Below, piece after piece: positions 14,913-33,288 of a stretch of 64,000 bases of DNA; the stretch's first letter is position 1, and each line of letters opens with the position of its first letter. The stretch is taken from positions 1 to 64,000 of IMG/VR virus record IMGVR_UViG_3300008627_000001; one strand, 5' to 3'. A program made the translations under genes and the position numbers. The notes below the pieces were generated by a model. The model did no database searches, had not been told where the DNA came from, and saw nothing but the letters and a program-made list of their open reading frames with translations. This DNA is from a virus.

Positions 14913-15121
14913 AGGTAAAAGCACCCGCCGTCGTCGCTTTGTTCTATTTTTCTTACTAGTGGGCTACATTCGATCCACAGTGGGAATTCTTGGCAAATAC
15001 TTCCTTTGCCTGTAATTATTTTTATTTTTTTAATTCTTTCTTCATGGCATTCTTTAATAGTAGCAATAATGTCATCATATGCTTCTTGTATGGAATAGCC
15101 GTGGTAGTCGATTACTATCAT
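14888..15121 (-). CDS. Smr (small MutS-related) domain protein
   Basis: A 77-residue stand-alone Smr domain. The family's HG motif is seen as DYHGYSIQEA (about 5-14) and the glycine motif as IITGKGS (about 35-41). Smr domains of MutS2 and related proteins are nucleases acting on branched DNA or on RNA and colliding ribosomes. In this cassette it is flanked by a radical SAM gene and an SGNH gene, which says little about function; it may be a hitchhiker. It overlaps the preceding gene by four bases. Confidence 0.8.
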   Translation of the reverse strand: MIVIDYHGYSIQEAYDDIIATIKECHEERIKKIKIITGKGSICQEFPLWIECSPLVRKIEQSDDGGCFYLWILVKKK

Positions 15122-16188
15122 ATATTAATTAATGAACCCTTTAATGTTATATATCCATTTTTATAATGTTGGTGATTTTTAAGTTTGTTTAACATGTTTA
15201 TGCAATCACTGTACAATGAATTGTTTGGCAAAAAAACTGCTTGCTCTAAAAATAAGTTGGTATTGTAATTGTTAACCCACCAAGAACCCCAATCTTCTAT
15301 ACTACTAATAGTGGCACCAACATTGTACTTTTGACATAGGTTTGCAAAATTTATAACATCCCTATAATTATTTTTTTGTAATACGAATGATAAATGAAAA
15401 TAACGATTGTTCTCTTTCAAAAAGTCTAGACTATCAATAACAGTACTCCAGTTACCTGGGTAACGCACTTTTCTATATACTTCTTCACTTCCTGCATCAA
15501 TACTAACTGCAAAAGATGTTACTTGATCCATAACTTTTGAATTTAAAAGCTTTTTATAATTTATGCGTGTGGCGTTTGACCGAATTGTAAATTTATGATT
15601 TTTTCTAGGAATATAATTATAGATTATATCACCATAAATTCCACTAGCAAATGGTTCTCCGTCGCCTCCCAATTCTATTAAAGACGCGTGTTCAAAGTTT
15701 GACACCAAATCTAAAAAATGCATTGCATAACTTTTTCTTAACTCAAATTCAGGACCCTTATTAATAAACCTAAATTCTGGCCGGCAACTTGGACATTGTA
15801 AATTGCAACTATCATCAATAGCAAATATAAATGAATACCTTTGAGGGAAATCACCGAATCGTATAGGCCCGGTGCATTTTGCTGTATTACAAAACTTAAA
15901 ACTGCTTCCTGCTGAAGTATGTTCTTGTAGTTTTTTAGCAATTGAATTGTTCCATATTTCTTCTATAGTGTTAAAATCTTTTATATTACCAATTAGATAA
16001 GGTAAATGACCATGGCATGAACAGATGAATACGTGGCCAAGTTTGTTAACAAGAATTGAACTGCTTGGCATTATACAATAAACATCTTCTTTAAAAGGAT
16101 GTAATTGGTTATCTCCCAATTTATACTTGTGTCTAATAGAACTTATTGAAGGTGTGCTTCTTATATAACGTAAGTAATCAACTTTCAT
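15118..16188 (-). CDS. Radical SAM protein with N-terminal twitch/SPASM-like module (type B), 356 aa
   Basis: The [4Fe-4S]/AdoMet motif CNLQCPSC supplies Cys128, Cys132 and Cys135, followed by LGGDGEPFAS, the GGE-like AdoMet amino-group motif (here GGDGE). Before the core lies a cysteine module (Cys38, the pair in ICSCHG at 56/58, then EEIWN, Cys100, Cys105) that looks like a SPASM/twitch auxiliary cluster moved to the N-terminus. It closely resembles the product of 20871-22007 over its whole length (shared KKLQE-T-AGS-FKFC and CNLQCPSCR). It begins within a perfect 30-base AT palindrome and lacks a clear ribosome site. Reaction and substrate unknown. Confidence 0.85.
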   Translation of the reverse strand: MKVDYLRYIRSTPSISSIRHKYKLGDNQLHPFKEDVYCIMPSSSILVNKLGHVFICSCHGHLPYLIGNIKDFNTIEEIWNNSIAKKLQEHTSAGSSFKFCNTAKCTGPIRFGDFPQRYSFIFAIDDSCNLQCPSCRPEFRFINKGPEFELRKSYAMHFLDLVSNFEHASLIELGGDGEPFASGIYGDIIYNYIPRKNHKFTIRSNATRINYKKLLNSKVMDQVTSFAVSIDAGSEEVYRKVRYPGNWSTVIDSLDFLKENNRYFHLSFVLQKNNYRDVINFANLCQKYNVGATISSIEDWGSWWVNNYNTNLFLEQAVFLPNNSLYSDCINMLNKLKNHQHYKNGYITLKGSLINI

Positions 16189-16216
16189 TTAAATATTTAT
16201 TAATAAATATTTAAAT
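16187..16216. repeat. Perfect 30-base AT-only palindrome overlapping a start codon
   Basis: Bases 16187-16216 read identically on both strands and contain no G or C. The right half carries AATAAATA and the left half its complement, so late-promoter-like motifs face both ways. On the minus strand the motif next to the gene ends five bases before the ATG of the 356-aa radical SAM gene, and the palindrome includes the first two bases of that ATG. It could be a late promoter, a regulator-binding site, or a weak hairpin hiding the start codon. Confidence 0.8.
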
Positions 16217-16218
16217 AT

Positions 16219-16353
16219 TTATTTGTATATAAATGGATCTCTCTTTTTAAGTTCTTTTAAACGCTTTCTATATCGTATCTCACGCTTAATTGCGTTAATA
16301 GGACGCATAGCTTGATACTTTGCTTTTTTATAGTATTTTTTTAATGTGTTCAT
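16219..16353 (-). CDS. Very basic 44-aa protein
   Basis: A short frame from ATG 16353 to TAA 16219-16221 encodes a 44-residue protein that is about 40 percent Lys plus Arg, with several Tyr and no Cys. It overlaps the end of the upstream SGNH gene by 26 bases and fills what would otherwise be a 139-base gap. Strong charge suggests nucleic-acid or membrane-surface binding. It was considered as a possible peptide substrate for the radical SAM enzymes, but nothing specific supports that. Confidence 0.5.
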   Translation of the reverse strand: MNTLKKYYKKAKYQAMRPINAIKREIRYRKRLKELKKRDPFIYK

Positions 16354-17155
16354 AAATTATCTCTGCCGCGTCTTCGTGTGCTTTCTCTAAAGGATGCGAA
16401 GTTGCAAATTCATAATTATTTATAAGTGCCCAGTCATTGAATCCCAAATACTTACTTGTTGGCCATGCTCCGGGAAAATGAAACCATACATCTTTATCAA
16501 TTAATGTTCTTAAATTAATAGTATATTGATTAGTATGATCTTCAAATAATTGCGAAGGCGTATGATGTCCTACGTATGTGAATAAGTATTTAATATTTTT
16601 ACTATTCAAAAATTCTTGAAGTAATAATATTTCTTTTAAACTGGTATATACATCGTCTTCATCGCTTACAGTATAATACCATGCTTTTGCTAAGTCTACA
16701 ATGCCTGCTTCTTTATATATATTATATTTTCTTTCTAAAGTGGCTTTAGTACTTTCGTAATTGGGAGCATCAGAACTAACCTTTTTAAACCATTCAGATT
16801 TTACTTCATTGGTTGCGGCATAAGGATCTAACGATAACCACTCTGAATCTACTTTATACATTTGGTCATTCAATGTTCCATTTATTAATTTGAACTCGCG
16901 CCTTGCAATAAATGTATACATGACTTGTACAAAAACATCTTCAGGATCATACTTCTTTAAGAATTCAATAGTATAATATAACACTCGCCGTGCCATAAAT
17001 GCATTGCCTCTTCCACTAGCTGCCGTGTTTATGTGCTTGGCTCCTAGTTTATTAGATACTAAATTACTCCAAGCATATTTACTAGGTCCAATACTATCAT
17101 TTGGTAATTCAGCACCATAAGTAAAACTATCTCCGGATGAGATGCATATTTTCAT
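16328..17155 (-). CDS. SGNH/GDSL-like hydrolase, 275 aa
   Basis: Block I is SSGDSFTYG with the likely nucleophile Ser10, block II the glycine/asparagine segment TAASGRGNAF (about 58-67), and the catalytic His region is SHPLEKAHEDAAEIIYEHI at the C-terminus (about 252-270). It probably hydrolyses or transfers an ester (for example an O-acetyl or acyl group) on a glycan. It is longer than the second cassette SGNH protein (14265-14912) but shares its start and end signatures, so the two are probably old paralogues. There is no signal peptide, so both act in the cytoplasm. Confidence 0.8.
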   Translation of the reverse strand: MKICISSGDSFTYGAELPNDSIGPSKYAWSNLVSNKLGAKHINTAASGRGNAFMARRVLYYTIEFLKKYDPEDVFVQVMYTFIARREFKLINGTLNDQMYKVDSEWLSLDPYAATNEVKSEWFKKVSSDAPNYESTKATLERKYNIYKEAGIVDLAKAWYYTVSDEDDVYTSLKEILLLQEFLNSKNIKYLFTYVGHHTPSQLFEDHTNQYTINLRTLIDKDVWFHFPGAWPTSKYLGFNDWALINNYEFATSHPLEKAHEDAAEIIYEHIKKIL

Positions 17156-17163
17156 ATTCTTAT

Positions 17164-18270
17164 TTAACGTATTTGATCTATTTGTAATTGTTTAAAGTTA
17201 CTATCGTGCCAAAAATAATCGAATGTAGCACTTGCGTCAGATGTTTGTAACTTATAAACATCTAAATAGTCATTCATAATATACCAAGTTAGATAAGGTA
17301 TGTCAGTATTAAAAGACTTTTGTAAGTTAACTTGTCCTACCTGTGGATGCCCCAATGTTAATGTTGGATCATCAGGATCTAATCCGTTTTGCCTTAACCA
17401 ATTTATAAATTCATTAATTCGTTCATTATGATGTGGGAAATCTGACTTCCTTGACCAACTAATATCAAAATCACCTGCGGCTTTTGTTTGTGATCGGCAT
17501 GCAATAGTAATTTCACCCAATGTCATTGTATTGCCACCACTGATATCTAATGCACCACCTTCATCTATAAAAACTTCCCAATGCGTTTTACCAACTGCTT
17601 TATTAACACCTACATAAACACCGCCAAACACTTTGTCTAAGCTACCAATTCCAAACCCTTCGAAGTCTGATTCATCTACTAAATCAAAGCGTGGTGCATT
17701 TAACCAACACATTAATTGTGACTTCTGCATCCACTCAGGCGCCTGTACTAACTTACGATTAGTTAATGCCCATGTTTCAAACTCGTGACATAACAAATTA
17801 AGTTGCCTTATATGATACTTTTCTTCAGGTGTGGCGTTTTTAAAATGCCGAGACATTGACGTTGACGTATCACCTGTATCAATGCCTTGTAATTCTTCAA
17901 ACCATCTATGTAACCAATTAAACTTTTCATGTTTAATGGATAGTCCTGGATGGCCAAACCCTACTTCACCATAATTAATACAATTTTCTAATGTATATGG
18001 CGCTGTTTCTATATTATAGTTTAATGAACTACTGTTAATAAAGTCTATCGTATCGTTGATTTCATCAAGAATCAATTGCCCTGATCGTTTTCCGTTTACA
18101 AAACCCAAAAAGCAATAGTTTTTTTCAAGTATTAAATTGTCGTTAAGTATTCCGTTTAACGCTGTAAGCCATTTGCGACTTAACCCTGTATCATATACGT
18201 CAATATAGACATCCATAGTACTATGATATCTTGTTCTTAACGTCATTACAATTTCATCTAATTTTTTCAT
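17164..18270 (-). CDS. Hypothetical cassette protein, 368 aa
   Basis: I do not recognise a family. Visible features are an N-terminal part with an LHRWFEEL segment (about residue 120), a SRHFKNAT motif and helical region (about 140-165), a WEVFIDEGGALDISGGNTM segment (about 230-250), and a C-terminal NWLRQNGLDPDDPTL. The last three have weaker counterparts in the 308-aa protein at 10998-11924. It overlaps the 2OG-dioxygenase gene by 17 bases, so the two may act together. The dioxygenase and this protein could be enzyme and adaptor, but that is conjecture. Confidence 0.6.
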   Translation of the reverse strand: MKKLDEIVMTLRTRYHSTMDVYIDVYDTGLSRKWLTALNGILNDNLILEKNYCFLGFVNGKRSGQLILDEINDTIDFINSSSLNYNIETAPYTLENCINYGEVGFGHPGLSIKHEKFNWLHRWFEELQGIDTGDTSTSMSRHFKNATPEEKYHIRQLNLLCHEFETWALTNRKLVQAPEWMQKSQLMCWLNAPRFDLVDESDFEGFGIGSLDKVFGGVYVGVNKAVGKTHWEVFIDEGGALDISGGNTMTLGEITIACRSQTKAAGDFDISWSRKSDFPHHNERINEFINWLRQNGLDPDDPTLTLGHPQVGQVNLQKSFNTDIPYLTWYIMNDYLDVYKLQTSDASATFDYFWHDSNFKQLQIDQIR

Positions 18271-19030
18271 TGATTAGTTTCTCCTTTACTTCTTCAAATG
18301 TTTTACCATATAGGCATACTCTAAGCGTAAGTCTTTCATTTGGTGTTGCTTCTACACGATGTTCTATACCACTATTAATTAACGCTACCTTGTAGGTATC
18401 TACTTTATAATAATTGTCACCTTCTCTAAACTCTGTTGCTCCACGTTTACTAGTTTCGCTATCTAAGTTAATAGCTATAACAATAGGTGTAAAAGTAATG
18501 TTATTAGACTTTAACAATCTATCCGGAACTGTTATAACATTATCCACATGCCAGTCGATGCAAGTATTTTTTGCTGACCATACGTAATTTACATCATAAT
18601 CTAAAATAAAGTCTTGCAAATTTAAATGTTCAATTAATTGTTTTCCTATTTCTTGCATGTATTTTTTATTATCAGTAAACTCTTTAATATTGTGTTGGTC
18701 CTCAAGAACATTAAAACGAGAGTACAACGGATTATCTGCTTGCCCTACTAATATAACTCCTTCTGTTCCTTTTTTGTCAGTAACTAGTGGGCGAATTTTT
18801 TCCATATCTATAGAATCATAATAATCTTTGTTTTTTACTATTAGATCTAAGACTTTTTTCAGTGCTTTAGATTTATCTTTTTCCTCAACTGAATAATATG
18901 TTTCTCTATATTTTCTAAGTATAGAAAAAACTTCTCTTAACTTAGCAATATCAAACATGTCATATTTGTCGTTAAAATCAATGTGTTGTGAACCAACCCA
19001 TGGTTCAGATTTGTCTAATATCTTATCCAT
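18254..19030 (-). CDS. 2-oxoglutarate/Fe(II)-dependent dioxygenase
   Basis: The iron-binding facial triad is visible as His161 and Asp163 in DWHVDN and His224 in GIEHRVEA, with Arg237 in RLTLRV a likely binder of the 2-oxoglutarate carboxylate. The His-to-Arg spacing and the RVEATPNERLTLR stretch resemble aspartyl/asparaginyl beta-hydroxylase-like enzymes and related phage dioxygenases. Length is 258 residues, with a helical N-terminus of about 90 residues outside the core. It would hydroxylate or desaturate a substrate using O2. It lies two bases from the flavin split-barrel gene and overlaps the 368-aa gene. Confidence 0.8.
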   Translation of the reverse strand: MDKILDKSEPWVGSQHIDFNDKYDMFDIAKLREVFSILRKYRETYYSVEEKDKSKALKKVLDLIVKNKDYYDSIDMEKIRPLVTDKKGTEGVILVGQADNPLYSRFNVLEDQHNIKEFTDNKKYMQEIGKQLIEHLNLQDFILDYDVNYVWSAKNTCIDWHVDNVITVPDRLLKSNNITFTPIVIAINLDSETSKRGATEFREGDNYYKVDTYKVALINSGIEHRVEATPNERLTLRVCLYGKTFEEVKEKLINEKIR

Positions 19031-19031
19031 T

Positions 19032-19580
19032 TTATATTCCTCCTATTGTTGTAGTATCAAACTTTAGAAATTCTTGTTCATCAATACTGGTGCGTATCCA
19101 AGCTGCCTTAGCAAATCCTCCATTTAACCTAATAGACTCGACATTGAGTCTATACATATTAAAGTCTAAAAAGTCAAAAAATCCTCTTGCTTTCTTATGC
19201 TTTTCTAAAAACTTTGATTTGTGTTCATTCTTGTCTACTAATTCTACTCTGCCTATAAAAGTGGCTCTGGGACTATTCATTCTCATACGTCCATGTAAAC
19301 TACCGTCAATTGTGCCATCTAATAATAAAGATATCTTTTTGTATGTTTGAATATTTTTACTATGGTCTGACAAATCTGATATAAAAATATAAGGAACTTT
19401 TCTAATAAAGCATGACTGAACCAAACTTACATATGGATGAGTTTGTAATGCATCATGACCATTTCCTAATGAAGTGGCCATATACATAAAACCACTATCA
19501 GCAGTTATTAAATTTTCAACAATATGTATTGCGTCTACTGTAGTAAAATTTGTTTCTAAACTTTTATCGTCTTCCACCAT
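19032..19580 (-). CDS. HugZ/pyridoxamine-phosphate-oxidase-like flavin split-barrel protein
   Basis: The 182-residue sequence follows the HugZ pattern: HPYVSLV (about 48-54), VPYIFISDLSDHSKNI (about 62-77), SLLLDG, RATFIGRVELV (about 105-115), a FLEKHKKARGFFDFLDF helix, then YRLNVESIRLNGGFAKAAWI (about 143-162). In that family the barrel binds FMN and/or heme, and HugZ proteins degrade heme. The C-terminal extension that supplies the heme-ligand His in H. pylori HugZ is not seen, so heme degradation is uncertain. It could be a flavin reductase serving the neighbouring iron-sulfur enzymes. It overlaps the 437-aa radical SAM gene by 25 bases. Confidence 0.8.
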   Translation of the reverse strand: MVEDDKSLETNFTTVDAIHIVENLITADSGFMYMATSLGNGHDALQTHPYVSLVQSCFIRKVPYIFISDLSDHSKNIQTYKKISLLLDGTIDGSLHGRMRMNSPRATFIGRVELVDKNEHKSKFLEKHKKARGFFDFLDFNMYRLNVESIRLNGGFAKAAWIRTSIDEQEFLKFDTTTIGGI

Positions 19581-20869
19581 TCTAAAATCTCGCCATTCAA
19601 AATATTATCTATAGTATAACTGGTTTTACGCAGATTGTCAATTTTTGCCATGCGTTGTTTGCCTTTCAAGATGCCTTGTTCGTACTCGTCGGACCACTCT
19701 TCTTGGAAAGTTGGTCTTTCTTTTAGATTTTTTAATACATCTATTAGCGGTTGTTGTTTCCATGTTGCCTCCTTACATTCTTCTAATAATTGATCTACTT
19801 TGTCGTTTAATAAGTTACGTGGTAAACACAATGGACTCATTATAATGTCCGGTGTAAAAGCAAAAGTAACTTTTGCTAATAACATCGTATCTAACTCCTT
19901 ACTTAATTCAAACATATTTTTTACTTCATATAATCCAGGTAAGGTTAAAGTAAAGTCTAAACGCATTTGGTTTGGATGCTTTTGTGCCGCCATACCTTGT
20001 TTATAATAGTGTAAAAACTTACTCCAATCTAAACCATCGCGTATGTATTCTCCTATAGCACCTGTACCATCAATTGATGCACATATTTGCCAGTCGCGTA
20101 TATTGTCTAGTATATTTCTAAACAAATGCGTTCCTTTATACTCTATACGAGATAAGTTTGTATTATATCTTGCGTATACTTTACTTCCGTGTCCTTGTTC
20201 TATAATTTGTTTCATATACTTCCAATGTTCTTCAAACATTAGAGGTTCGCCACCTACCCAGTATATCTCTTCTACTTTGCCATTTGCTACTGCATCAGCA
20301 AATTCTTTTTCTACTACTTGCGATTGAACCTCGCTTATTTGTTTTCTTACAGTTGGGTCCATCCAATTATTTTTTGGATTACTGTAATCAATCATGTTGT
20401 TGTTACGTTGTTCTGTTTCCCAACTACTACTTAACATATCGCCACACATACGACATTTAAAATTACATAAATTACTAAAGCGATAATCCCAACTTACTGG
20501 CTTCATTGTAGTGTAGCCTGTTTCGTCTGTACTTGCTATCACTTCGTCGTATTTGTGTTTAAATAAATTCCAAAAATAATCTCTATATACGTCAGTGTTT
20601 AGTAATTTTTTATTACATACTTGGCAAGCATCTATTTCTTCTCCCGCCATGTGTGCTCTACGTACACTTTTCATATATTCACTATTCCAATGTTCTTCTA
20701 ATGATATTGGATTATATTCACCTGTGCCGGCTTCAGTGTCTATATATTGCTTAAAGCTTTGTGCAGGCTCGCGTGAAGCGCAACACAATCTACGTTCTGT
20801 TTGTGGACTTAGGTAAGTATGCACCCACGGTGCCATACACATTGTTTCTGGTTTTTGTATTTTTTTCAT
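19556..20869 (-). CDS. Radical SAM protein with N-terminal twitch/SPASM-like module (type A), 437 aa
   Basis: The radical SAM motif is CNFKCRMC (Cys135, 139, 142), followed by GGEPLMFEEHW (about residue 206) for AdoMet binding and by SIDGTGAIGEYIRDG, a common substrate-side segment. The N-terminal module has CMAPWVH (Cys11), a CC pair (29-30), then a LEEHWNSEYM stretch and CQVC (82, 85): the ingredients of an auxiliary iron-sulfur domain, placed before rather than after the core. The product of any such reaction is unknown. It lacks the C-terminal ETFPEL tail present in four sister proteins. The next gene, for the flavin protein, overlaps its end. Confidence 0.85.
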   Translation of the reverse strand: MKKIQKPETMCMAPWVHTYLSPQTERRLCCASREPAQSFKQYIDTEAGTGEYNPISLEEHWNSEYMKSVRRAHMAGEEIDACQVCNKKLLNTDVYRDYFWNLFKHKYDEVIASTDETGYTTMKPVSWDYRFSNLCNFKCRMCGDMLSSSWETEQRNNNMIDYSNPKNNWMDPTVRKQISEVQSQVVEKEFADAVANGKVEEIYWVGGEPLMFEEHWKYMKQIIEQGHGSKVYARYNTNLSRIEYKGTHLFRNILDNIRDWQICASIDGTGAIGEYIRDGLDWSKFLHYYKQGMAAQKHPNQMRLDFTLTLPGLYEVKNMFELSKELDTMLLAKVTFAFTPDIIMSPLCLPRNLLNDKVDQLLEECKEATWKQQPLIDVLKNLKERPTFQEEWSDEYEQGILKGKQRMAKIDNLRKTSYTIDNILNGEILEWWKTIKV

Positions 20870-20870
20870 T

Positions 20871-22007
20871 TTATTTTTTGGGTATTAATAATGAATCTTT
20901 ACTAATGCTTATATTTCTGTTGAAAGTGATCGGAGGTACTTCCGGAGCGTGAAACCACGGATGTGTTATGATATTATTATAGATTTTAACCCATTCATCA
21001 TATAATTCGTGGTCAGGCATGAATACTTGTTGTCTTTTAAAATTTGTGTAGCGGTCTGCTTCCGTCAAGCCGTTATTCTGATCTACCACTGGCCATGTTA
21101 TGCCCCACGCCGTGCCCCAATCGTGTACAGGGTTAAGAAATCCTTTAACTTCAAACTTTTCGCAAAGATTTATAAAATTTATAATATCTTTAAAATTATT
21201 TTTTTGCACAACAAAAGTCATATGAAATACATAATTATTATCTTTCAAAAATTGTAAATTATCTAGAACAGTTTCCCATTTGCCAGGAGGTCTAACAATG
21301 TTATATACGTCCTTAGTGCCTGCATCAATGCTTATTGAAAATTCTTGTATATTATTTTTTAACATAGTAGATGTTTCAAACTTGGATTGATCTATTAATG
21401 TTGCATTTGATCTAATTGTAAAACGATGTTTTGGATTTGGTTTATAATTATATATAATTTCACTATATATTTTACTAGCAAAAGGTTCACCGCCGGCGAA
21501 TTCTATAAGTACTGATCCTTTATATTTGTCCAAAAGTTCTAAGAATTTTTTTACATAACTTTTTTTCTTTTCAAACTGTTTTCCAGATTTATAATACATC
21601 AGTTCATTTCTGCAACTAGGGCACTGTAAATTGCAACTATCATCCGTTGTTATATTAATTGTAAAATCATGAAATGGATCCTCCTCCTCAAAAGGACCAT
21701 GACAATGTTTTAGATCACAAAATTTAAATGTTGATCCTGCTTTTGTGTTTTCTTGTAGTTTTTTAGCAACTGGGTTGTTCCATATATCATGCAATCTATA
21801 AAAATCAAAAATATGGCCAACAGGATAAGGTAAGAATCCTTCACAACTACATATAAAAATATATCCATCTTTATCCATCGTCATGTTGGTTTCAGGAAGA
21901 ATACATGTAAAATTTTTAGCAGATAAGTCGACTTTATTTCTATACTTATTTTTTAAGGAGAAATTACCGCCGGTTTTTCGAACAAGGGTTAAATATTTTG
22001 TATCCAT
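20871..22007 (-). CDS. Radical SAM protein with N-terminal twitch/SPASM-like module (type B), 378 aa
   Basis: Closest in the window to the 356-aa protein at 15118-16188. The core motif is CNLQCPSC (Cys125, 129, 132), with EFAGGEPFAS about 45 residues on. The N-terminal module shows Cys35, the CSC of ICSCEG at 53/55, HDIWNNPVAKKLQE, then Cys97 and Cys102. The two type-B proteins differ from type A in CSC rather than CC and in the spacing of the last cysteine pair (C-x4-C rather than C-x2-C). It overlaps the preceding type-A gene by 19 bases. No substrate can be read. Confidence 0.85.
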   Translation of the reverse strand: MDTKYLTLVRKTGGNFSLKNKYRNKVDLSAKNFTCILPETNMTMDKDGYIFICSCEGFLPYPVGHIFDFYRLHDIWNNPVAKKLQENTKAGSTFKFCDLKHCHGPFEEEDPFHDFTINITTDDSCNLQCPSCRNELMYYKSGKQFEKKKSYVKKFLELLDKYKGSVLIEFAGGEPFASKIYSEIIYNYKPNPKHRFTIRSNATLIDQSKFETSTMLKNNIQEFSISIDAGTKDVYNIVRPPGKWETVLDNLQFLKDNNYVFHMTFVVQKNNFKDIINFINLCEKFEVKGFLNPVHDWGTAWGITWPVVDQNNGLTEADRYTNFKRQQVFMPDHELYDEWVKIYNNIITHPWFHAPEVPPITFNRNISISKDSLLIPKK

Positions 22008-23335
22008 TTTTTATAGTCATAATTTATGAATTCTGCTAACACAGAATCAACATCATTTAAAGTTTTGCTTCTTACACTATCTACTTTACAGATAATGGTA
22101 TGTAACATGGTGTCTAGATATTCTTCACCATCTTTTTCCTTTCTAAGATCTTCACTATACATATAAGAAATTAAAGACTCTACTTCTTTTACGTTATCAA
22201 AGTTTTTATCTATTAACTCTTGCCAATTATATGCTCTTAACTTATTTGCAATAATATCTTTTACTTCAGGTGAATGCATTTGTATATTAAAATGTTTGGG
22301 ATAATGCATTAAATTTAGATACCAAGAATCTAAGTCTTTAATTTCTTTAACCCAGTCTGCAACATCTGTTATGTTATGGAAATTAAACAAGTTAAATGTA
22401 GTGCATATTTCTGTTTCCATGTTACTGGTTTTGTTCTCAGAAATATACAGTATATTACTGTTTACTTCATCCCATTTTGCACCATAACGTTGGTATTCAA
22501 ATTTATCGCCAATATCATCTACACTAAAAGATATTCTACAATGTTTAAAATGTGGTAAAATATCATGAAATTCATCTTTTGGCAACTGAGTGCCATTTGT
22601 ATTATAATGAATATTTATATTTTTTGCGTGTCCGGATTCAATTAATGTTTCTAATACTGTAAAGTGTTCTTTAATCATCCAGGGTTCACCGCCTGTAAAC
22701 TCTAAATGCTTTACGTTAGGCAATATTTCCTTTAGGTCTTCCCAAAATTGCGGACTTTTGCGTGGCCATTCGCCTTGCTTTAGATAGTAATATGCTGATG
22801 ATTTTTTTGCATCTTCTTTTTTAAGTCCATGGAACTTTATATCTAATTCTATTTCTTCTTGCGCCCATTTGCTACTACTCCATGATCCGCATATTCTACA
22901 TTTTAAATTACAAATAGTTCCTAACTTTAAGTCTAAATATGCAATATCATTTTCTGTAATATCTTTACTAAAAATATCACGCATTTCAGGCAAGTGATGT
23001 GTAAAGTAGTGTGCCCAATTTATACGTTTACTTTCCAATCCAGCGTCTTCCTCATCCCAACACTTTTTGCAAATCTCAGGCTTTTTGCCGTCTAAGAAGT
23101 CTTGTCGTAACTTTTGCATATCAGGACTATTAAACGCATTTGTAATATTGTCGCCATTGTTTAAATTATACGGCTCATTTGTTCCTTCTTTACGCACAGG
23201 CCCTTCTGTCATACAACAAGGTTTAAGCCATCCTTTAGCATCTGCTTCCATATGCATAAAGGGCAAGTAGCATAGTGTAGGTGTTTCCTTAAAAGAGTCT
23301 ACTTTATGTATAACAGTTTTTAGTTTTTCATTCAT
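21989..23335 (-). CDS. Radical SAM protein with N-terminal twitch/SPASM-like module (type A), 448 aa
   Basis: Core motif CNLKCRIC (Cys142, 146, 149) is followed by EFTGGEPWMIKEHF. The N-terminal module consists of LCYLPFMHME (Cys22), a CC pair at 40-41, a PDMQKLRQDFLDGKKPE helix, and CKKC (89, 92). The C-terminal half probably completes the barrel and caps the active site. It ends with a lysine/aspartate-rich helix instead of the ETFPEL tail. It overlaps its upstream and downstream neighbours by 4 and 19 bases, so it is translated as part of the radical SAM run. Confidence 0.85.
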   Translation of the reverse strand: MNEKLKTVIHKVDSFKETPTLCYLPFMHMEADAKGWLKPCCMTEGPVRKEGTNEPYNLNNGDNITNAFNSPDMQKLRQDFLDGKKPEICKKCWDEEDAGLESKRINWAHYFTHHLPEMRDIFSKDITENDIAYLDLKLGTICNLKCRICGSWSSSKWAQEEIELDIKFHGLKKEDAKKSSAYYYLKQGEWPRKSPQFWEDLKEILPNVKHLEFTGGEPWMIKEHFTVLETLIESGHAKNINIHYNTNGTQLPKDEFHDILPHFKHCRISFSVDDIGDKFEYQRYGAKWDEVNSNILYISENKTSNMETEICTTFNLFNFHNITDVADWVKEIKDLDSWYLNLMHYPKHFNIQMHSPEVKDIIANKLRAYNWQELIDKNFDNVKEVESLISYMYSEDLRKEKDGEEYLDTMLHTIICKVDSVRSKTLNDVDSVLAEFINYDYKKWIQNI

Positions 23336-24585
23336 AGTTCACTCAACTCTGGAAATGTTTCTTTAAAGTTTTCATTTCTTACATCGTCTACTTGGTTGGT
23401 TAGTTTTAAAAAGTCTTGTAGCAATTGTTCGTTGGCAGGTTGATTAATAAAGTTAATAGCACTTTCATAACCGTTTGTTGCTCGTTGCAAGCCGTCCAAC
23501 GGTCTAATATATTCAATATGCTCTTTGTATTTAGCGATTAGTTTTTCTTTAAGATTATTTGGTAGATTGTCTATGCGATAGTGTGGTGGATTCATTAATA
23601 TGTTTATGTTAAAGTCTTGTGCTTGTATTAAACCTCTATCCATCCAATCACGATGAAAGTCTGGCATATGGAAACTGTTCATTATGCTTAACGTGCAACT
23701 AATATAAAAATCCACGTTAGGACAAATTTCTAACATTTCAAATCTATTTTGTTCAGTCTCTTTCCAAATAGTTCCTTTACGTATATACTCGGCACGTTTG
23801 CCCATGCCATCCAAACTTGCGCCGACACTAACACTATCAAAATGTTTCCACATTTCAAAAATACTTTTTCCTTTAAACTTCATTTCGCTCATATTAGTGT
23901 TGTAAATAAGTTTTACATCAAAACGCTCTTGTCGTATAAGTTCTTCTAAAATTTTCCAATGCTCAACCATTGTAAGTGGTTCACCACCCGCAAAATAAAA
24001 TTGCTCAATGTATGGCATATGTCGCTTTGCTTCTTCATAAAAGTCTTTGTCATCACCACATCGTATTACTTTGGGATGATTTGGCGTTTGTCCTAACTTA
24101 ACGGCATCACTATACCAATTAGAACTAAACAGTGGTCCGCAAGTGCGACAACGGAAGTTACACATATTACTAAAGCGAACGTCCCAATACACAATTTCAA
24201 AATTTGGATCAACGTTATGTGATTTTGTTTTATTAATATGATGTCCAAAATGTTTATTTGCACTTACTCTACCACTCATGAATCCGTTTTTATCTTGTTC
24301 ATAGCATTTACTACATTCTTTAAGGTGCAATCCTTTAAACATTCTATCACGTATATTTTGCATTTTCTCGCCGTGCCAAATCTCTTCCAAAGTATTATCT
24401 TTTAAATCACCAACTGGCATATTCATATCTGACATACAGCAAAGATGCACAGAGGAATCAGGATAAGCATGTATATGAGTCCAGGGATAGATACAAAACG
24501 TAGGATTTTCTAAGAGATTGAATTGTTCTTGTGGTGATAGATCCTCAAGTTGAACTTTCAACGGCTTTTTTTCATTATAATCCAT
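23332..24585 (-). CDS. Radical SAM protein with N-terminal twitch/SPASM-like module (type A), 417 aa
   Basis: Core motif CNFRCRTC (Cys142, 146, 149), then YFAGGEPLTMVEHW and a GASLDGMGKRAEYIRKG segment. The N-terminal module is the clearest SPASM-like one: CIYPWTH (Cys31), CC at 49-50, VGDLKDNTLEEIWHGEKM, and CSKC (91, 94). It is highly similar to the 437-aa protein encoded just upstream (24575-25888), sharing the order of motifs and the C-terminal R-N-E-N/D-F/M-x-E-x-FPEL tail, so the two are tandem duplicates. It overlaps both neighbours. Confidence 0.87.
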   Translation of the reverse strand: MDYNEKKPLKVQLEDLSPQEQFNLLENPTFCIYPWTHIHAYPDSSVHLCCMSDMNMPVGDLKDNTLEEIWHGEKMQNIRDRMFKGLHLKECSKCYEQDKNGFMSGRVSANKHFGHHINKTKSHNVDPNFEIVYWDVRFSNMCNFRCRTCGPLFSSNWYSDAVKLGQTPNHPKVIRCGDDKDFYEEAKRHMPYIEQFYFAGGEPLTMVEHWKILEELIRQERFDVKLIYNTNMSEMKFKGKSIFEMWKHFDSVSVGASLDGMGKRAEYIRKGTIWKETEQNRFEMLEICPNVDFYISCTLSIMNSFHMPDFHRDWMDRGLIQAQDFNINILMNPPHYRIDNLPNNLKEKLIAKYKEHIEYIRPLDGLQRATNGYESAINFINQPANEQLLQDFLKLTNQVDDVRNENFKETFPELSEL

Positions 24586-25888
24586 CCATTAACTCCTTTA
24601 ATTCTGGAAATACTTCTACCATATCTTCATTTCTAAATCTATCAAACTTATGTATTTCCTCTCTAAACTTTGGTAATAAGTCTGTTCTATCTTCGTTCTC
24701 TAAAAAGTGTATGGCGCCTTCAAATCCATTTGTAGCACGTTTGATATCATCTGCTTCGGCAATGTTTACTAAATGCTCTTTATATAATTTTATTACTTCT
24801 TCTCTCATATGTTGTGGCAAGATAGTTAGTCTATAATAGTCTGGTCCTTGTAATATATTAATATGAAAGTCATACGCCTTAATAAGGCCACGATGCATCC
24901 AATCATTATGGAAATCTACAATATGATATGCATTTAATACCTGCAGTGTAGCACTTGGAAAAAAGTCTACTGTAGGACATATATCCAACATTTCTTCTCT
25001 GTTGCGAACTATTTTATCCCAATTAGTTCCTTTGCGTATATACTCTGCTCTTGCACCTATCGCGTCTAAACTTGCACCTACTGATACTGTTTCAAACTCT
25101 TTCCATATTTCAAATACGTTTCTGCTTTTATACTTCGTTTCACTAAAGTTTGTGTTATACATTAACTCTACATTTGTTTTGCCGCGTTTTAATAGTTCAT
25201 CTATTAAGCGCCAGTGTTCTTCCATCATTAGCGGTTCTCCGCCAGCAAAGTATATTTTATGTAAGTTATCTATATATGGTTCTACCATTTCCCAATTTAA
25301 TTCTTTATTGCCACGTGTATATTCAATCTTTAAGTCTTGCCCATATATGCGATTAAACTCTTTAACCCAATTACTACTAAACTGCGGGCCACACATTCTA
25401 CAACTAAAATTACATAAATTATTAAACCGCATATCCCAATATATAATATTCGGATCAGCACTGCCATCTGTTTGTGTGCTATCTATATAATCTACAGCAT
25501 ACGCAAAGTTTCTATTGCTTTCATTACGCAAACTAAAAAAGCCATTGTCCTCTTTCTCATAACATTTTACGCATTGCTCGCTAGGTTTATCTTGTAGCAT
25601 ATTAAGACGCATTTGTCTCATGCTTTCACCGTTCCATACTTCTTCTAAAGTATTGTCGCGTAAATTTCCTACTGTTTCATTCATCTCTGCCATACAGCAA
25701 GGATATGCTTCGCCTTGTGACCAACCGTGTAAATGTATCCACGGCAGCATACAGAAGTGTTTACTATGTGCTAACAGTTCATACTGTAATTGCGTAAAAT
25801 CACTCTTTTGTAATCGTTGTTTGTTTCTATCAAGTAACAACGTCTTACTATCAAACGGATTATCTTCGTCTAAAAATCCTTTATCCAT
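24575..25888 (-). CDS. Radical SAM protein with N-terminal twitch/SPASM-like module (type A), 437 aa
   Basis: Core motif CNFSCRMC (Cys159, 163, 166), followed by YFAGGEPLMMEEHW and GASLDAIGARAEYIRKG. N-terminal cysteines are CMLPWIH (Cys46), CC at 64-65, then VGNLRDNTLEEVWNGESM and CVKC (106, 109). The motif order is that of a SPASM protein cut and rejoined, with the auxiliary-cluster part at the front. It forms a tandem pair with 23332-24585, and its last residues keep the RNEDMVEVFPELKEL tail. The two might act as a heterodimer or on successive positions of one substrate; neither can be shown here. Confidence 0.87.
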   Translation of the reverse strand: MDKGFLDEDNPFDSKTLLLDRNKQRLQKSDFTQLQYELLAHSKHFCMLPWIHLHGWSQGEAYPCCMAEMNETVGNLRDNTLEEVWNGESMRQMRLNMLQDKPSEQCVKCYEKEDNGFFSLRNESNRNFAYAVDYIDSTQTDGSADPNIIYWDMRFNNLCNFSCRMCGPQFSSNWVKEFNRIYGQDLKIEYTRGNKELNWEMVEPYIDNLHKIYFAGGEPLMMEEHWRLIDELLKRGKTNVELMYNTNFSETKYKSRNVFEIWKEFETVSVGASLDAIGARAEYIRKGTNWDKIVRNREEMLDICPTVDFFPSATLQVLNAYHIVDFHNDWMHRGLIKAYDFHINILQGPDYYRLTILPQHMREEVIKLYKEHLVNIAEADDIKRATNGFEGAIHFLENEDRTDLLPKFREEIHKFDRFRNEDMVEVFPELKELMDGL

Positions 25889-27248
25889 TTAAACTATTAT
25901 ACCAATCTGCTAGGCGTGGAAACGTTTCTACAAAATTCTTTCTTCTACGCTCATCATATTGTTTGTAGAAATGATAAAAATCATTATGCAATGCTGGTTT
26001 TTCAAATGTATCGCTGTGCGGTGTTTCTACCACATCTAAATAATCTATTAAACGCTCTACGTGATTGCGTTCCATTTCATGCATCAACTTATTTTTCTTT
26101 GCTTTTCTATACCAACCTTGTATATCCCCTCTAAACTCCGCAAGTATTTCTTTCGGCAATACCAACGGAGATTGGAAACTTGGAAAACGTAAAATATTTA
26201 ATGTAAATGTTGGAAAGCTCGATCCGTACTCTTCTTTAAATTCCAATTGTTGCTGTAAAAATTGTGGAAGAGAGTTTAAACACAATGCGTTAATTGTACA
26301 CATCATATGAAAACCTTCAAGGTTTCCTTCGGTACAGGCTCTGTGGCAATTACTCACCCATCTATTCCACTCTAATCCATCACGTATATATTCTGCTTGT
26401 ACGCCCATCGCTTCACAACTTGTATATAAATGCAAGTGCGGAACATGCTGTGCATTTTCAATAAATCTATCTAATAGTTCGTCTTTGGCACCCAGATTAC
26501 TGTTAATAGCAAAACGCATATTTGTTTGCCTGTCACTATTTTTAAACCATTCAAATAGTTTCCATATGTCGTCAGACATCAATGGTTCGCCACCAGTAAT
26601 ACGAAGTTCATCAAGTGTTTCGTGTAATTCCTCATCCCACCACTTCCAGAACGCTTCAACATAAGGATTAGTTTCATCCTTTTTGTATAATTGAGCAGAA
26701 GGGTGGGTATGAGTAAAATGATTACGACCGTCGCTAATTAGATTTTCGTACGGTCCATCTTTTTTGATATCCTTTACCCAGGAACTACTAAAAGCAGGAT
26801 TACAGTAAGAACAGCTAAAGTTGCAAGTCCGATCAAAGGCGGTCTCAAGAGTGCGAAGTGCAAAATTTTCTGTCGGTAATTTGTCTTTGACATAATTAAC
26901 ATCCTCCTCGTCATAAATGACTGATTTATGGACACGATCCGAAATAGCATCGGGCCCAATATCTTCAATCTTCCAACAATACTCACAGCCAGCAGGACGT
27001 TGTCCCATTAGCATATTGTGTCGATCTTTCTTTTTTTGGAATGTGTTATGGATAGCGGCTGGATTGGATTGAAGTTCTGTTACATCTATTTCGTGGGCAG
27101 GCGGGTGATGACAACTTGTTGTCATTCCACTTCCTAACCATATTGTAGCGTTCCTCCATTTTGCCATACAAAAAGATGGACTTATAGTATTATTTAGCCA
27201 TTTTTTGACCTCTAAATCGGTCTCTCTACCCGGTTTTCTTAGTGTCAT
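25881..27248 (-). CDS. Radical SAM protein with N-terminal cysteine module (type C), 455 aa
   Basis: Core motif CNFSCSYC (Cys142, 146, 149), then RITGGEPLMSDDIW. The N-terminal module differs from types A and B: PSFCMAKWRN (Cys27), SCHHPPAHEID (Cys46), and CEYC (88, 91), so the CC pair is replaced by a single Cys followed by HHPP. This pattern is shared with 28265-29707, making the two a second sub-pair. The C-terminus keeps RRKNFVETFPRL. It has no overlap with the 339-aa radical SAM gene but lies directly next to it. Confidence 0.86.
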   Translation of the reverse strand: MTLRKPGRETDLEVKKWLNNTISPSFCMAKWRNATIWLGSGMTTSCHHPPAHEIDVTELQSNPAAIHNTFQKKKDRHNMLMGQRPAGCEYCWKIEDIGPDAISDRVHKSVIYDEEDVNYVKDKLPTENFALRTLETAFDRTCNFSCSYCNPAFSSSWVKDIKKDGPYENLISDGRNHFTHTHPSAQLYKKDETNPYVEAFWKWWDEELHETLDELRITGGEPLMSDDIWKLFEWFKNSDRQTNMRFAINSNLGAKDELLDRFIENAQHVPHLHLYTSCEAMGVQAEYIRDGLEWNRWVSNCHRACTEGNLEGFHMMCTINALCLNSLPQFLQQQLEFKEEYGSSFPTFTLNILRFPSFQSPLVLPKEILAEFRGDIQGWYRKAKKNKLMHEMERNHVERLIDYLDVVETPHSDTFEKPALHNDFYHFYKQYDERRRKNFVETFPRLADWYNSLNG

Positions 27249-28268
27249 TTAAAACCTCATTACTGTTTCTTTATTAACCTCAGTTGATTTACATTTTAAA
27301 TTACATATATCCAACTTAGGTATGTTTTCTATAAATTCTTTCCAACAAGGATTGTTTAATACTGATTCTAACCCACGTTGTTTTATGTTCTTGTCATGCG
27401 TCAACCAGTTTTTATATGCCTCATCATTATATCTATTAATAATCCAGCAACACGGATAAAAATATCCTCTGCTATCAATGAATAACCCTTTTGTACCTAT
27501 AAAGCAATAAGGTATTAAATCACCCACCAAAGATTGCTTTTTATATAACTGTACTGCTGTCTTAAAACTATCATCGTATATTTTCCTTTTTGTAAGACGT
27601 ATGGTATTACTTTCGTATCTACCAGATTTACTAATGTAATCTTCTATAGGATCTAAAGAATTATCATAGTGTTGATAATAAAAATTAAACTTATTACTTT
27701 TAGTTTGTCTTATAGCATCAAAATTTAGTTCCTTTGCAAGTGCTATCATATGATCTTCATGTTTATAATTAAAAGAAAAATATATCATATCCCATACTAA
27801 TCTAACAGGTTTTTTTCTTAATGCATTTACGCCTTCCATTATACTATTCCAATCACAATTTATTCTATATTTCTCATTACTTTCTTGATCATAACCATCC
27901 AAACTAAAATGCACCTGATCGTATTTGTTTAATACTTTAGCCAATCTTTCCCACCATACTACTGGTTTGTAACTACCATTGGTAACAATACTTAACTCTA
28001 TTTTAGGATTAATAGTTTTAAAATATTCACAAATCTCTATAAATTCTCTATTGTAAATTGGATCACCGTCGTAGCCACACAATGTAATTCTTTTTATTTG
28101 TGTTAAGATATCCTTAGTAAAGTTTTTTGTAAAAAAGCCTAATGTTAAATTATCTCTTTCTAATGTTTGTGGTTTTTCTGTTCTAGAACATCTAGGACAT
28201 TTTAACGTACATAAACTACTAAGTTCAATATGCCAATGCCACAGTGGCCAGTTAAATTCATTTTTCAC
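27249..28268 (-). CDS. Radical SAM protein of conventional layout with C-terminal SPASM/twitch-like cysteines, 339 aa
   Basis: The core motif CTLKCPRC is at the very start (Cys20, 24, 27), as in ordinary radical SAM/SPASM enzymes, and auxiliary cysteines follow at the C-terminus (YCFIG, then YPCCWI, then a final CNLKC). It is the only one of the nine cassette radical SAM proteins with this order. A HFSLDGYDQESNEKYR segment marks the usual barrel strand. It sits between the two type-C proteins, overlapping one by four bases. It may be the catalyst that differs in chemistry from the eight permuted proteins. Confidence 0.85.
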   Translation of the reverse strand: MKNEFNWPLWHWHIELSSLCTLKCPRCSRTEKPQTLERDNLTLGFFTKNFTKDILTQIKRITLCGYDGDPIYNREFIEICEYFKTINPKIELSIVTNGSYKPVVWWERLAKVLNKYDQVHFSLDGYDQESNEKYRINCDWNSIMEGVNALRKKPVRLVWDMIYFSFNYKHEDHMIALAKELNFDAIRQTKSNKFNFYYQHYDNSLDPIEDYISKSGRYESNTIRLTKRKIYDDSFKTAVQLYKKQSLVGDLIPYCFIGTKGLFIDSRGYFYPCCWIINRYNDEAYKNWLTHDKNIKQRGLESVLNNPCWKEFIENIPKLDICNLKCKSTEVNKETVMRF

Positions 28269-29707
28269 GATTGCGCCAACCTCTTACATTCTTCCCACCA
28301 ATCTATCATTTCGGGGAAAGTTTCGAGGAAGTTTGTTCCTCGGCGTTTATCGTGTTCGTTAAAAAACCTATAAAAATCTGCTTTACAGTCTTTTACATAG
28401 TGCTCGTCTAAATTACTACCTTCTTGCCACCACGCCAAGTCACGTTGCATACGTTGAACTTCATAATCTTTAAATCCCTTAAAGCGTGTTTTTTCGTCTT
28501 CCATATTATCCAACATCCAACAAATGTTGTCGTCATGTATCATTTGGTATGCTTCGGGCAATAATTGTATGCTTTGCCAACGTGGTTGTCTCAACAGTGG
28601 AGTATCAAACCACACTCGTTGGTAAGTCTCGCTATATATTTGTCTTAAACCATGTATAGCGGCTAACAGTTTATCCATGCCTGTTACACTTAAATTATTA
28701 TATGTAATAATAAACGTAACGCTGTTTCTATATGGAACTTCTGTTAAAAATCTATTAACGTTGTCCCACATTCTATTAAAATCTAATCCATTGCGTATAT
28801 ATTCCGCTTGCTCCATCCACGTGTCAACGCTAACATATTGCATAAAGTGTTCTACTTTTTCATCTAAGCAAATAGGTTTAATTGCTTCAATATATTTGTT
28901 AAACAGTTTATCCTCTACTGAGAAGTTACTCGTTACGTTAAGATGTAAATCGCTTTTTGGATGCTCATTAATGTAATCAAATACTTTGTAAGTATTTTTA
29001 TCCATCATTGGTTCGCCGCCAGTCATTCTAAAGTGTTTTAAATCTTTATATAAGTCGGGCCACCATTTCCAAAATGCTTCTACATGTGGATTATAATGAC
29101 TATGTGGAATACATGCTCTGTCGCCAGTAAAATGTTCAGGTGCGTTATGTGGTGTTTTTGTGGGCCATGCACCATACTGCTTCATTTCCTTTTCCCACGA
29201 TGTGCTAAACTGTGGTGAACAGTAACTACACTTTAGATTGCAATTATGATTAAAGTTAACTTCAACATAGCGTGGGTTTTTGTCTGCATTCCACGGAGCA
29301 TTAAGTATAGTTTCAAAGTCCATGTGTGCCCATGGCTCGCCACTTCTATAATGCCTGTCGCTCATATGCCCAGTATCTTCAATGTTCCAACAATACTGGC
29401 ATTCTTTTGGACGTTCTCCTTCTAGCATTAACTTACGCATTTGTTTCTTGTGTTGCGTATTATGTAAAGCAGATGGATTTTGTTTAACTTCTTCTGCGTC
29501 TATTTTGTGTAGTGGTGGGTGGTAGCAACTGTTGTTTAATCCAGTTGGTAAATGTAAACTAACTTGATTCCATTTAGCAAGGCAAAAGGACGGTGATACA
29601 GAGTCTAATTGCTCTGTAATATTTTCTGCGCTTTTGTAAAAGTCCGATTTAAATTTCCCATCTTCAACTTCTACTTTATCGCCCTTATTGTCCTTGTATA
29701 GTTCCAT
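28265..29707 (-). CDS. Radical SAM protein with N-terminal cysteine module (type C), 480 aa
   Basis: Core motif CNLKCSYC (Cys156, 160, 163), then RMTGGEPMMDKNTY. The N-terminal module is PSFCLAKWNQ (Cys42), SCYHPPLHKID (Cys61), then CQYC (103, 106), matching 25881-27248. The C-terminus ends in RRGTNFLETFPEM, the tail shared by four of the nine proteins. It is the first radical SAM gene of the run. Its ATG overlaps the stop of the GT-like gene upstream by one base, so glycosyl-transfer and radical SAM genes are translationally linked. Confidence 0.86.
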   Translation of the reverse strand: MELYKDNKGDKVEVEDGKFKSDFYKSAENITEQLDSVSPSFCLAKWNQVSLHLPTGLNNSCYHPPLHKIDAEEVKQNPSALHNTQHKKQMRKLMLEGERPKECQYCWNIEDTGHMSDRHYRSGEPWAHMDFETILNAPWNADKNPRYVEVNFNHNCNLKCSYCSPQFSTSWEKEMKQYGAWPTKTPHNAPEHFTGDRACIPHSHYNPHVEAFWKWWPDLYKDLKHFRMTGGEPMMDKNTYKVFDYINEHPKSDLHLNVTSNFSVEDKLFNKYIEAIKPICLDEKVEHFMQYVSVDTWMEQAEYIRNGLDFNRMWDNVNRFLTEVPYRNSVTFIITYNNLSVTGMDKLLAAIHGLRQIYSETYQRVWFDTPLLRQPRWQSIQLLPEAYQMIHDDNICWMLDNMEDEKTRFKGFKDYEVQRMQRDLAWWQEGSNLDEHYVKDCKADFYRFFNEHDKRRGTNFLETFPEMIDWWEECKRLAQS

Positions 29708-33281: not shown

Positions 33282-33288
33282 ATACATT

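What the first reader, a model, noticed from the sequence alone, without database searches (positions are those of the whole stretch)
15118..29707. Run of nine radical SAM genes in one phage operon
Seen: nine CxxxCxxC radical SAM cores, eight of them in near-continuous overlapping order from 29707 down to 19556 with one more at 15118-16188. Known: radical SAM/SPASM proteins tailor peptides, sugars and cofactors, and phages rarely carry more than a few. Inference: a dedicated multi-step pathway whose substrate is not visible. The nearby GTs, sulfotransferase, carbamoyltransferase, SGNH hydrolases and dioxygenase suggest glycan or glycoconjugate modification. The chosen substrate could equally be a phage or host peptide. 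This is my main candidate for an undescribed system.
Basis: partly seen in the sequence, partly recalled or inferred. Interest (0 to 1): 0.92.

Follow-up and report, generated by a model that had tools for sequence, protein, structure and literature searches.

The report
Ordered radical SAM operon in phages
A large T4-like bacterial virus carries nine radical-chemistry enzyme genes in one stretch, and the core of that stretch turns out to be a gene set kept in nearly the same order, beside sugar-transfer and fibre-like genes, in many uncultured viruses; what it makes is unknown, most likely an unusual sugar coat.

Summary
Confirmed: nine intact radical SAM (rSAM) genes, each with CX3CX2C, lie on the minus strand where stated; eight form one run. 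Six of nine pass the NCBIfam cut-off for N-terminal-twitch rSAMs (NF033640); three do not. In 124 related viral loci plus the window the run resolves into five paralogous slots in order I-G-E-D-B (in the window E is doubled and H, C and A are extra): 538 of 589 slot pairs are in order in 69 dereplicated loci, shuffled maximum 60%. Two non-rSAM genes prove array-bound when used as independent seeds: a GT-A-fold gene before slot I (53 of 54 dereplicated loci with room carry an rSAM) and an unknown 368-aa protein, F10, after slot B (46 of 46). Upstream lie fibre-like and two GT8-like genes, downstream often SGNH-like and carbamoyltransferase genes. Best reading: successive radical steps on a glycan made in the host-recognition island, probably expressed late. 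The substrate is unproven. A conserved 33-aa peptide that looked like a RiPP precursor was tested and rejected: it goes with the carbamoyltransferase, also without rSAMs. Phages with many rSAMs are already in print; the conserved ordered operon I did not find there.

The parts
28265..29707 (-). rSAM slot I, first of the array
   Evidence: NF033640 327.8 bits; next rSAM after the GT-A gene in 75 of 80 GT-A-seeded loci
27249..28268 (-). rSAM H, accessory, C-terminal SPASM type, outside NF033640
25881..27248 (-). rSAM slot G
   Evidence: NF033640 309.5 bits; clade support 0.933
24575..25888 (-). rSAM slot E, first copy (F); structure modelled
   Evidence: NF033640 406.5 bits; model pLDDT 89.3
23332..24585 (-). 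rSAM slot E, second copy (E), 46% identical to F
   Evidence: NF033640 399.2 bits
21989..23335 (-). rSAM slot D
   Evidence: NF033640 352.2 bits
20871..22007 (-). rSAM C, accessory, 44% identical to A, below the NF033640 cut-off
19556..20869 (-). rSAM slot B, last of the core array
   Evidence: NF033640 289.8 bits; previous rSAM before F10 in 67 of 80 F10-seeded loci
15118..16188 (-). rSAM A, apart from the run, sister of C
17164..18270 (-). F10, unknown 368-aa protein, array-bound
   Evidence: 46 of 46 dereplicated F10-seeded loci with room have 3 or more rSAMs; no Pfam or NCBIfam match
29707..30633 (-). GT-A-fold protein, array-bound, before slot I
   Evidence: 53 of 54 dereplicated loci with room have an rSAM; fold match Z up to 9.6 over about 140 residues; no Pfam match
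31242..32105 (-). GT8-like protein
   Evidence: 52 of 69 loci have this family; profile matches glycogenin at 8e-9
32089..32931 (-). GT8-like protein
   Evidence: same family
30866..31255 (-). 129-aa protein of a family upstream of the array
   Evidence: 30 of 69 loci
32931..33287 (-). 118-aa protein of a family upstream of the array
   Evidence: 49 of 69 loci
33332..34243 (-). fibre-like protein (by eye) heading the run
   Evidence: 45 of 69 loci; TATAAATA at 34350, 107 bp upstream; no Pfam match
34369..35910 (-). fibre-like protein with a weak Peptidase_G2 match
   Evidence: below cut-off; 36 of 69 loci; TATAAATA at 36001 and 36012
12632..14299 (-). NodU-type carbamoyltransferase, exchangeable accessory
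   Evidence: Pfam 1.3e-52 and 2.6e-39; 32 of 69 loci
16219..16353 (-). 44-aa peptide; partner of the carbamoyltransferase family, not rSAM-specific
14265..14924 (-). SGNH-like protein, accessory
   Evidence: DUF6071 below cut-off; superfamily in 29 of 69 loci
16328..17155 (-). SGNH-like protein, accessory
   Evidence: DUF6071 27.4 bits, cut-off 27

Best explanation
The run is the local copy of a conserved operon in the fibre/host-recognition island of T4-like viruses: [fibre-like genes] - 118 aa - GT8-like - GT8-like - 129 aa - GT-A fold - rSAM I - (H) - G - E(E) - D - (C) - B - F10, followed by exchangeable SGNH-like, carbamoyltransferase and other genes. Shown: the slots, their order, the linkage, the kept cysteines. 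Inferred: the operon is transcribed late by read-through from the fibre-gene promoters; the five twitch rSAM enzymes, each with one auxiliary cluster, act in turn on sugar residues (oxidation, dehydration, epimerisation or carbon-skeleton change, the kind of chemistry recalled for BtrN, DesII and BlsE) while the neighbouring transferases build the chain and carbamoyl/acyl transferases cap it. The product is an unusual glycan on the host envelope (changing phage receptors late in infection) or on the virion's own fibres; I think the envelope somewhat likelier.
For: Order: 538 of 589 slot pairs in I<G<E<D<B order in 69 dereplicated loci, label shuffles mean 0.50, largest of 2000 0.60. Strand: 355 of 360 rSAMs on the locus's majority strand. 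Independent seeds: GT-A family, 53 of 54 dereplicated loci with 8 kb room have an rSAM and 48 have 3 or more; F10, 46 of 46 have 3 or more. Slots form clades (I 0.996, G 0.933, E 0.998, D 0.856, B 1.0) in a tree of 138 rSAMs from 28 loci. Sugar context in 69 loci: GT-A superfamily 59, GT8-like 52, carbamoyltransferase 32, SGNH-like 29. In Vibrio phage K566 four rSAMs matching the slot profiles (118-171 bits) interleave with two Pfam GT8 genes; LpxC (Pfam 1.3e-40) lies a few kb away. TATAAATA: 4 of 6 copies in the window fall in its 2.6% intergenic sequence, 91-115 bp before minus-strand genes, three of them before the two fibre-like genes at the head of the run; no gap over 60 bp from 34243 down to 16328.
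Against: No substrate, product or activity is known. The slot E model is as close to peptide-acting enzymes (anSME, SkfB, SuiB) as to sugar-acting ones (BlsE, DesII), all within about 1 Z. Sugar genes nearby do not prove that the rSAMs act on sugar; of genes with a recognised sugar link only the GT-A and GT8-like families reach half of the 69 loci, and Pfam does not recognise them as such (0 of 25 and 1 of 24 members match a transferase model); representatives of six further families that I had loosely labelled GT match no Pfam model. In the tree of all 360 rSAMs support for D, B and E is weak (0.375, 0.39, 0.08); the smaller tree's loci were chosen by labels that come from sequence, so it is partly circular. 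TATAAATA is rarer in the window than expected by chance (6 against 15.4), and CTAAATA shows no enrichment. K566's PagP annotation has no Pfam support.
Confidence: 0.47

Rival explanations
1. The array modifies a protein: several rSAM enzymes install cross-links, epimerised or otherwise altered residues in the fibre or another virion protein co-transcribed with them.
For: The array stands behind fibre-like genes, always upstream and on the same strand where found (48 of 48 members of that family). Closest folds include peptide-acting enzymes. The GT-A model's best Foldseek match is a peptide S-glycosyltransferase (SunS, 4.3e-4).
Against: No RRE-like domain by Pfam in the nine or F10. The only small ORF cluster present in more than four of 69 loci belongs to the carbamoyltransferase. 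K566's array lies among GT8 genes.
Confidence: 0.2
2. The rSAM genes serve general host metabolism or Fe-S economy during infection (boosting, cofactor supply), without a common substrate.
For: Proposed in print for other many-rSAM phages (PMC2853527, PMC5332604; passages). An A-type Fe-S carrier is in 7 of 26 array records.
Against: Fixed order and two array-bound non-rSAM partners. The carrier is absent from 19 of 26 records, the own record included (records may be fragments); Fer2 ferredoxin in 1 of 26.
Confidence: 0.12
3. Loose accumulation: tandem duplication in a hypervariable island, with paralogues kept by drift or for varied minor roles.
For: E is doubled in the window; other loci carry extra or missing slots; rSAM cassettes differ between close pelagimyophages (PMC7029224, passage).
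Against: Slots are old and ordered; every slot keeps both sets of cysteines.
Confidence: 0.13
4. Viperin-like antiviral or superinfection nucleotides made by rSAM enzymes.
For: Viperin is among the fold neighbours (Z 12.7).
Against: Viperin model NF038283 scores at most 33 bits against a cut-off of 180 in the nine; no nucleotide-pathway neighbours were noticed.
Confidence: 0.03

Closest known systems
NCBIfam NF033640, twitch domain-containing radical SAM protein
   Same: Six of nine proteins pass its cut-off over nearly the full profile
   Different: An architecture label (kind: subfamily) whose description gives no function; A, C and H fall outside; the five-slot order is not part of the model
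T4-like virus TARA_ERS488813_N000010 with 12 rSAM genes (PMC5332604, passages read)
   Same: Many rSAM genes in one uncultured T4-like genome
   Different: Reported for its Fe-S genes; the passages I read mention no order or GT linkage; its sequence was not compared here
Host recognition cluster of pelagimyophages (PMC7029224, passages read)
   Same: Fibre genes, GT8 genes and rSAM cassettes in one hypervariable island
   Different: There rSAMs are optional cassettes; here a fixed array with two array-bound partners. GT-A and F10 have no relative, slot I only a remote one, in 50,697 phage records
Campylobacter phages CP220/CPt10 (PMC2853527, passages read; regions fetched)
   Same: Five rSAMs in an exchangeable module; its amidinotransferase is related (26% identity, 5e-20) to one in 8 of 69 loci here
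   Different: The six CPt10 rSAMs examined are 193-319 aa and reach at most 48 bits with the slot profiles: not the same array
BtrN-type twitch rSAM enzymes
   Same: Profile of the six weakly matches BtrN's auxiliary domain (4m7t, E 0.0035, query 29-105 to chain 189-262)
   Different: Here that domain is N-terminal, in BtrN C-terminal: swapped domain order
Vibrio phages K566/K567
   Same: Named phage records with a run of related rSAMs between GT8 genes
   Different: About 24% identity, four rSAMs on two strands; no relative of F10 or GT-A among the 13 genes compared

Membership tests
NF033640 N-terminal twitch rSAM | whole-protein score above 170 bits | tested here: met
   B, D, E, F, G, I (6 of 9)
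NF033640 N-terminal twitch rSAM (A, C, H) | whole-protein score above 170 bits | tested here: not met
   A 44.7 and C 65.1 bits, H no match at E<=0.01
Radical SAM superfamily | CX3CX2C motif and core domain | tested here: met
   motif in 9 of 9; PF04055 at E<=0.01 in 9 of 9, above gathering score in 6; slot E model matches rSAM folds up to Z 13.7
Twitch/SPASM enzymes | auxiliary-cluster cysteines outside the core | tested here: met
   four or five conserved extra Cys in slots G, E, D, B and four in I; cluster binding itself was not tested
RiPP biosynthesis cluster | precursor peptide specific to the rSAM cluster | tested here: not met
   the one recurrent small ORF also follows carbamoyltransferases without rSAMs; peptides under 20 aa or very variable ones would be missed
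RiPP biosynthesis cluster | RRE recognition domain | tested here: inconclusive
   no Pfam match in the nine or F10; a divergent RRE would be missed
Viperin family (NF038283) | score above 180 bits | tested here: not met
   at most 33.1 bits in the nine
Pelagimyophage-type host recognition cluster | variable island with fibre genes and GT8-type transferases in the structural region | tested here: inconclusive
   fibre-like and GT8-like genes are there, but the island's borders (VrlC, gp14) were not checked
LPS/O-antigen modification system | array-dependent change of an envelope glycan | not testable with these tools
   needs glycan analysis of infected cells
Fe-S supply module with many rSAMs (PMC5332604) | A-type carrier or IscU in the same genome | tested here: inconclusive
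   PF01521 not found in the own record, found in 7 of 26; records may be fragments; IscU not tested

The most novel reading that the evidence does not exclude
The GT-A - I - G - E - D - B - F10 operon is one radical-SAM assembly line: about five successive radical steps, more than in any single pathway I can recall, making one conserved product (a new type of sugar or glycan head) shared by diverse uncultured T4-like viruses and nearly absent from named phage records.
Probability: 0.35. Interest if true: 0.85.

Novelty: new variant of a known kind. Interest (0 to 1): 0.62.

Why it matters
A fixed five-enzyme radical SAM array in viruses would be an unusual amount of radical chemistry aimed at one product, encoded by the invader and placed with fibre-like genes. 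It gives a concrete case for how uncultured T4-like viruses may remodel surfaces, names two array-bound partners of unknown activity (a GT-A-fold protein and F10) that can be expressed now, and points to Vibrio phages K566/K567 as a possible genetic model.

Tried and rejected
Peptide substrate. A small-ORF screen found a 33-aa family with a near-invariant C-terminal end. It looked ideal: alternative codons for the commonest residue at each of the last 20 positions; present in 76 of 80 F10-seeded loci; more often where slot B is present (26 of 29 loci against 4 of 16, Fisher 2e-5); used as seed, 80 of 80 loci had F10 upstream and 73 of 73 with 6 kb room had 3 or more rSAMs. One slot E rSAM (L067 9980-11242) ends in the same motif, the only one of 6,317 frames of 150 aa or more. 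A counter-seed with the carbamoyltransferase refuted it: the peptide is within 1.5 kb upstream of that gene in 59 of 80 loci (50 of 59 at the same 4-bp overlap), and of 54 loci with 9 kb room 28 have the peptide and no rSAM. The peptide seed had been drawn from array loci, which hid this; the counter-seed's first row came from L071, has F10 in 0 of 80 loci and so samples another branch. Precedent for small partners of an O-carbamoyltransferase: SxtJ and SxtK with SxtI (PMC2679770, passages).

Structure comparison did not choose a substrate. PDB sequence searches with GT-A and F10 gave nothing with E below 0.1. The viral scans stopped at 600 candidate rows and kept the best 80, so counts describe the best-matching loci, not all of IMG/VR. 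One search (GT8-like seed) gave 13 near relatives only and is not used for linkage. The one genome scan found 1 bacterial relative, by short exact peptide patterns. In the Bacteroidota sample NF033640 passes its cut-off in 2 of 296 genomes, F10 gives one weak partial match in 296; other phyla were not sampled. Up/down labels are wrong for genes overlapping the array end by under 50 bp (F10), so F10's place is taken. Searches of print for the array; for the peptide motif: (open-licence PMC only). (mycofactocin) served the rejected peptide idea; listing only.
Full report
What is there. Eight (B to I) form one head-to-tail run on the minus strand, 19556-29707; A lies apart at 15118-16188. Six pass the cut-off of NF033640, a family with an N-terminal twitch domain. 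A and C are sisters (44% identity), E and F a tandem pair (46%), H is a different, C-terminal SPASM type. The window belongs to a 124,451-bp IMG/VR virus record; its T4-type baseplate and recombination genes were recognised by eye (recalled motifs), and its terminase is 53% identical to that of large Pseudomonas phages.

It is a conserved array, not one phage's oddity. The best 80 loci, 44 more seeded by slot I and the window were searched with profiles grown from the nine: 646 rSAM-like ORFs, 642 with the motif, 91 of 125 loci with five or more. After dereplication (loci sharing an rSAM of 85% identity joined) 69 remain, 50 with five or more. Slots I, G, E, D and B follow one order in 538 of 589 pairs, against at most 60% in 2000 label shuffles. 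29 of 69 contain the full ordered set, E or F counted as E; 192 of 286 neighbouring pairs overlap. In 27 loci with the plain I-G-E-D-B string plus the window each slot is one clade. Two cautions: that subset was picked by labels that come from sequence, and in the tree of all 360 sequences only I and G are well supported.

Independent seeds. Profiles of two non-rSAM neighbours were used to fetch loci without reference to rSAMs. GT-A-fold family (window 29707-30633): 78 of 80 loci have an rSAM, and the next rSAM downstream is slot I in 75 of 80; dereplicated and with 8 kb room, 53 of 54 have an rSAM and 48 have three or more. F10 (window 17164-18270): 74 of 80 loci have an rSAM, the previous one is slot B in 67 of 80, within 100 bp in 59; dereplicated with room, 46 of 46 have three or more. 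I take these two genes as parts of the system. The alignments used as seeds came from array loci, so divergent branches without an array could be missed, as happened with the peptide below. In the window F10 is separated from B by two genes, so the window is a somewhat rearranged copy.

Neighbourhood in the 69 loci: GT-A superfamily 59, GT8-like 52, 118-aa-type protein 49, fibre-like family 45, carbamoyltransferase 32, F10 30, SGNH-like 29, amidinotransferase 8; an unannotated group of families is in 39, and its six representatives scanned match no Pfam model. The GT8-like profile matches glycogenin (8e-9). The GT-A model (pLDDT 86) matches B4GALNT1 and other GT-A enzymes at Z up to 9.6 over about 140 residues, a fold-level statement only. 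From 34243 down to 16328 there is no gap over 60 bp; TATAAATA (the T4 late promoter motif, recalled) stands before the two fibre-like genes at the head of the run. Late read-through is inferred.

Chemistry. Each slot keeps CX3CX2C and four or five further cysteines in the N-terminal domain, which fits one auxiliary cluster. That domain weakly matches BtrN's C-terminal auxiliary domain, so the domain order is swapped. Slot E's model (pLDDT 89) is close to BlsE (Z 13.7), anSME (13.2), SkfB (13.0), viperin (12.7), DesII (12.7) and MoaA (12.6), which are close to ties, and its N-terminal part was barely tested. The fold gives no substrate.

Substrate. Glycan: linked and accessory genes with a recognisable role are mostly carbohydrate genes, and in Vibrio phage K566 four related rSAMs (two of three scanned pass NF033640) alternate with GT8 genes, with LpxC a few kb away. 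Protein: same operon as fibre-like genes, not tested. Ribosomal peptide: a promising 33-aa family was found and then shown to go with the carbamoyltransferase; details are under Tried and rejected.

Distribution. Among 50,697 phage records slot F finds three records, slot I two, and GT-A, F10 and rSAM C none by tblastn at 1e-5. In 25 virus records that I chose from the held loci, mostly long ones, 25 of 25 have NF033640 above its cut-off, with 1 to 21 matches each. In 296 Bacteroidota genomes 2 pass. PF01521 is in 7 of 26 virus records, Fer2 in 1, photosystem reaction-centre genes in 1, so cyanophage-type genes are the exception here; the window's host is unknown.

Prior work. Many rSAMs in phages is known: PMC5332604 (12 in a T4-like environmental genome), PMC2853527 (11 and 12 in Campylobacter phages, five in an exchangeable module), PMC3322345 (six), PMC7029224 (rSAM cassettes and GT8 genes in the pelagimyophage host-recognition island), PMC7150976 (rSAM gene prevalent in Tasman Sea viral samples). 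Of each I read passages only. Those passages do not describe the slot order or the two partners; my searches are listed under Tried and rejected and cover open-licence papers only. CPt10's rSAMs are not this array (at most 48 bits).

Verdict. Observation confirmed; interpretation partly supported. Its kind (rSAMs in a phage surface island) is known, its ordered operon form was not found in what I could search, and its product is open.

Noticed in passing
window 16219-16353 (-); e.g. L398, L405, L431 upstream of the carbamoyltransferase: A short peptide (33 aa in most array loci, 44 in the window) ending in or near RKRDPFIYK precedes a NodU-type carbamoyltransferase, usually overlapping it by 4 bp, in 59 of 80 seeded viral loci; no match in Pfam, PHROGs, 50,697 phage or 72,556 plasmid records. 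Probably a small partner of the enzyme.
   Followed up: partly
L067 9980-11242 (+): A slot E rSAM whose last residues are RKQDPFIYE, like the carbamoyltransferase peptide; the only such frame of 6,317 of 150 aa or more.
   Followed up: partly
window 7275-10949 (-): 1,224-aa protein with repeats such as FDFSWHPD...YVFPSQWQRDGGTYYV; its family groups by profile with the GT-A-fold family of 29707-30633. The repeats may be degenerate copies of a GT-A segment (by eye).
   Followed up: partly
window 10998-11927 (-): 309-aa protein that by eye shares motifs with F10 (17164-18270); no Pfam or NCBIfam match.
   Followed up: no
window 19032-19580 (-): CREG/PNPOx-type protein (Pfam 2.2e-11; HutZ-like below cut-off) between F10's neighbour and slot B; its family was seen in 1 of 69 loci.
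   Followed up: no
window 36747-51557 (-): A single 4,936-aa open frame, probably a giant structural protein.
   Followed up: no
L127 2716-3669 and 1045-1932 (+), outside the window in the same record: An H-type rSAM (232 bits with the H profile) and a weak rSAM-like gene.
   Followed up: no
L128 9959-11248 (+): Single N-terminal-twitch rSAM in a Persicobacter-labelled metagenome genome, above the NF033640 cut-off.
   Followed up: partly
L143 23978-25244 (+): Vibrio phage K566 carries LpxC (Pfam) and a gene annotated PagP (no Pfam match) near its rSAM/GT8 run.
   Followed up: partly
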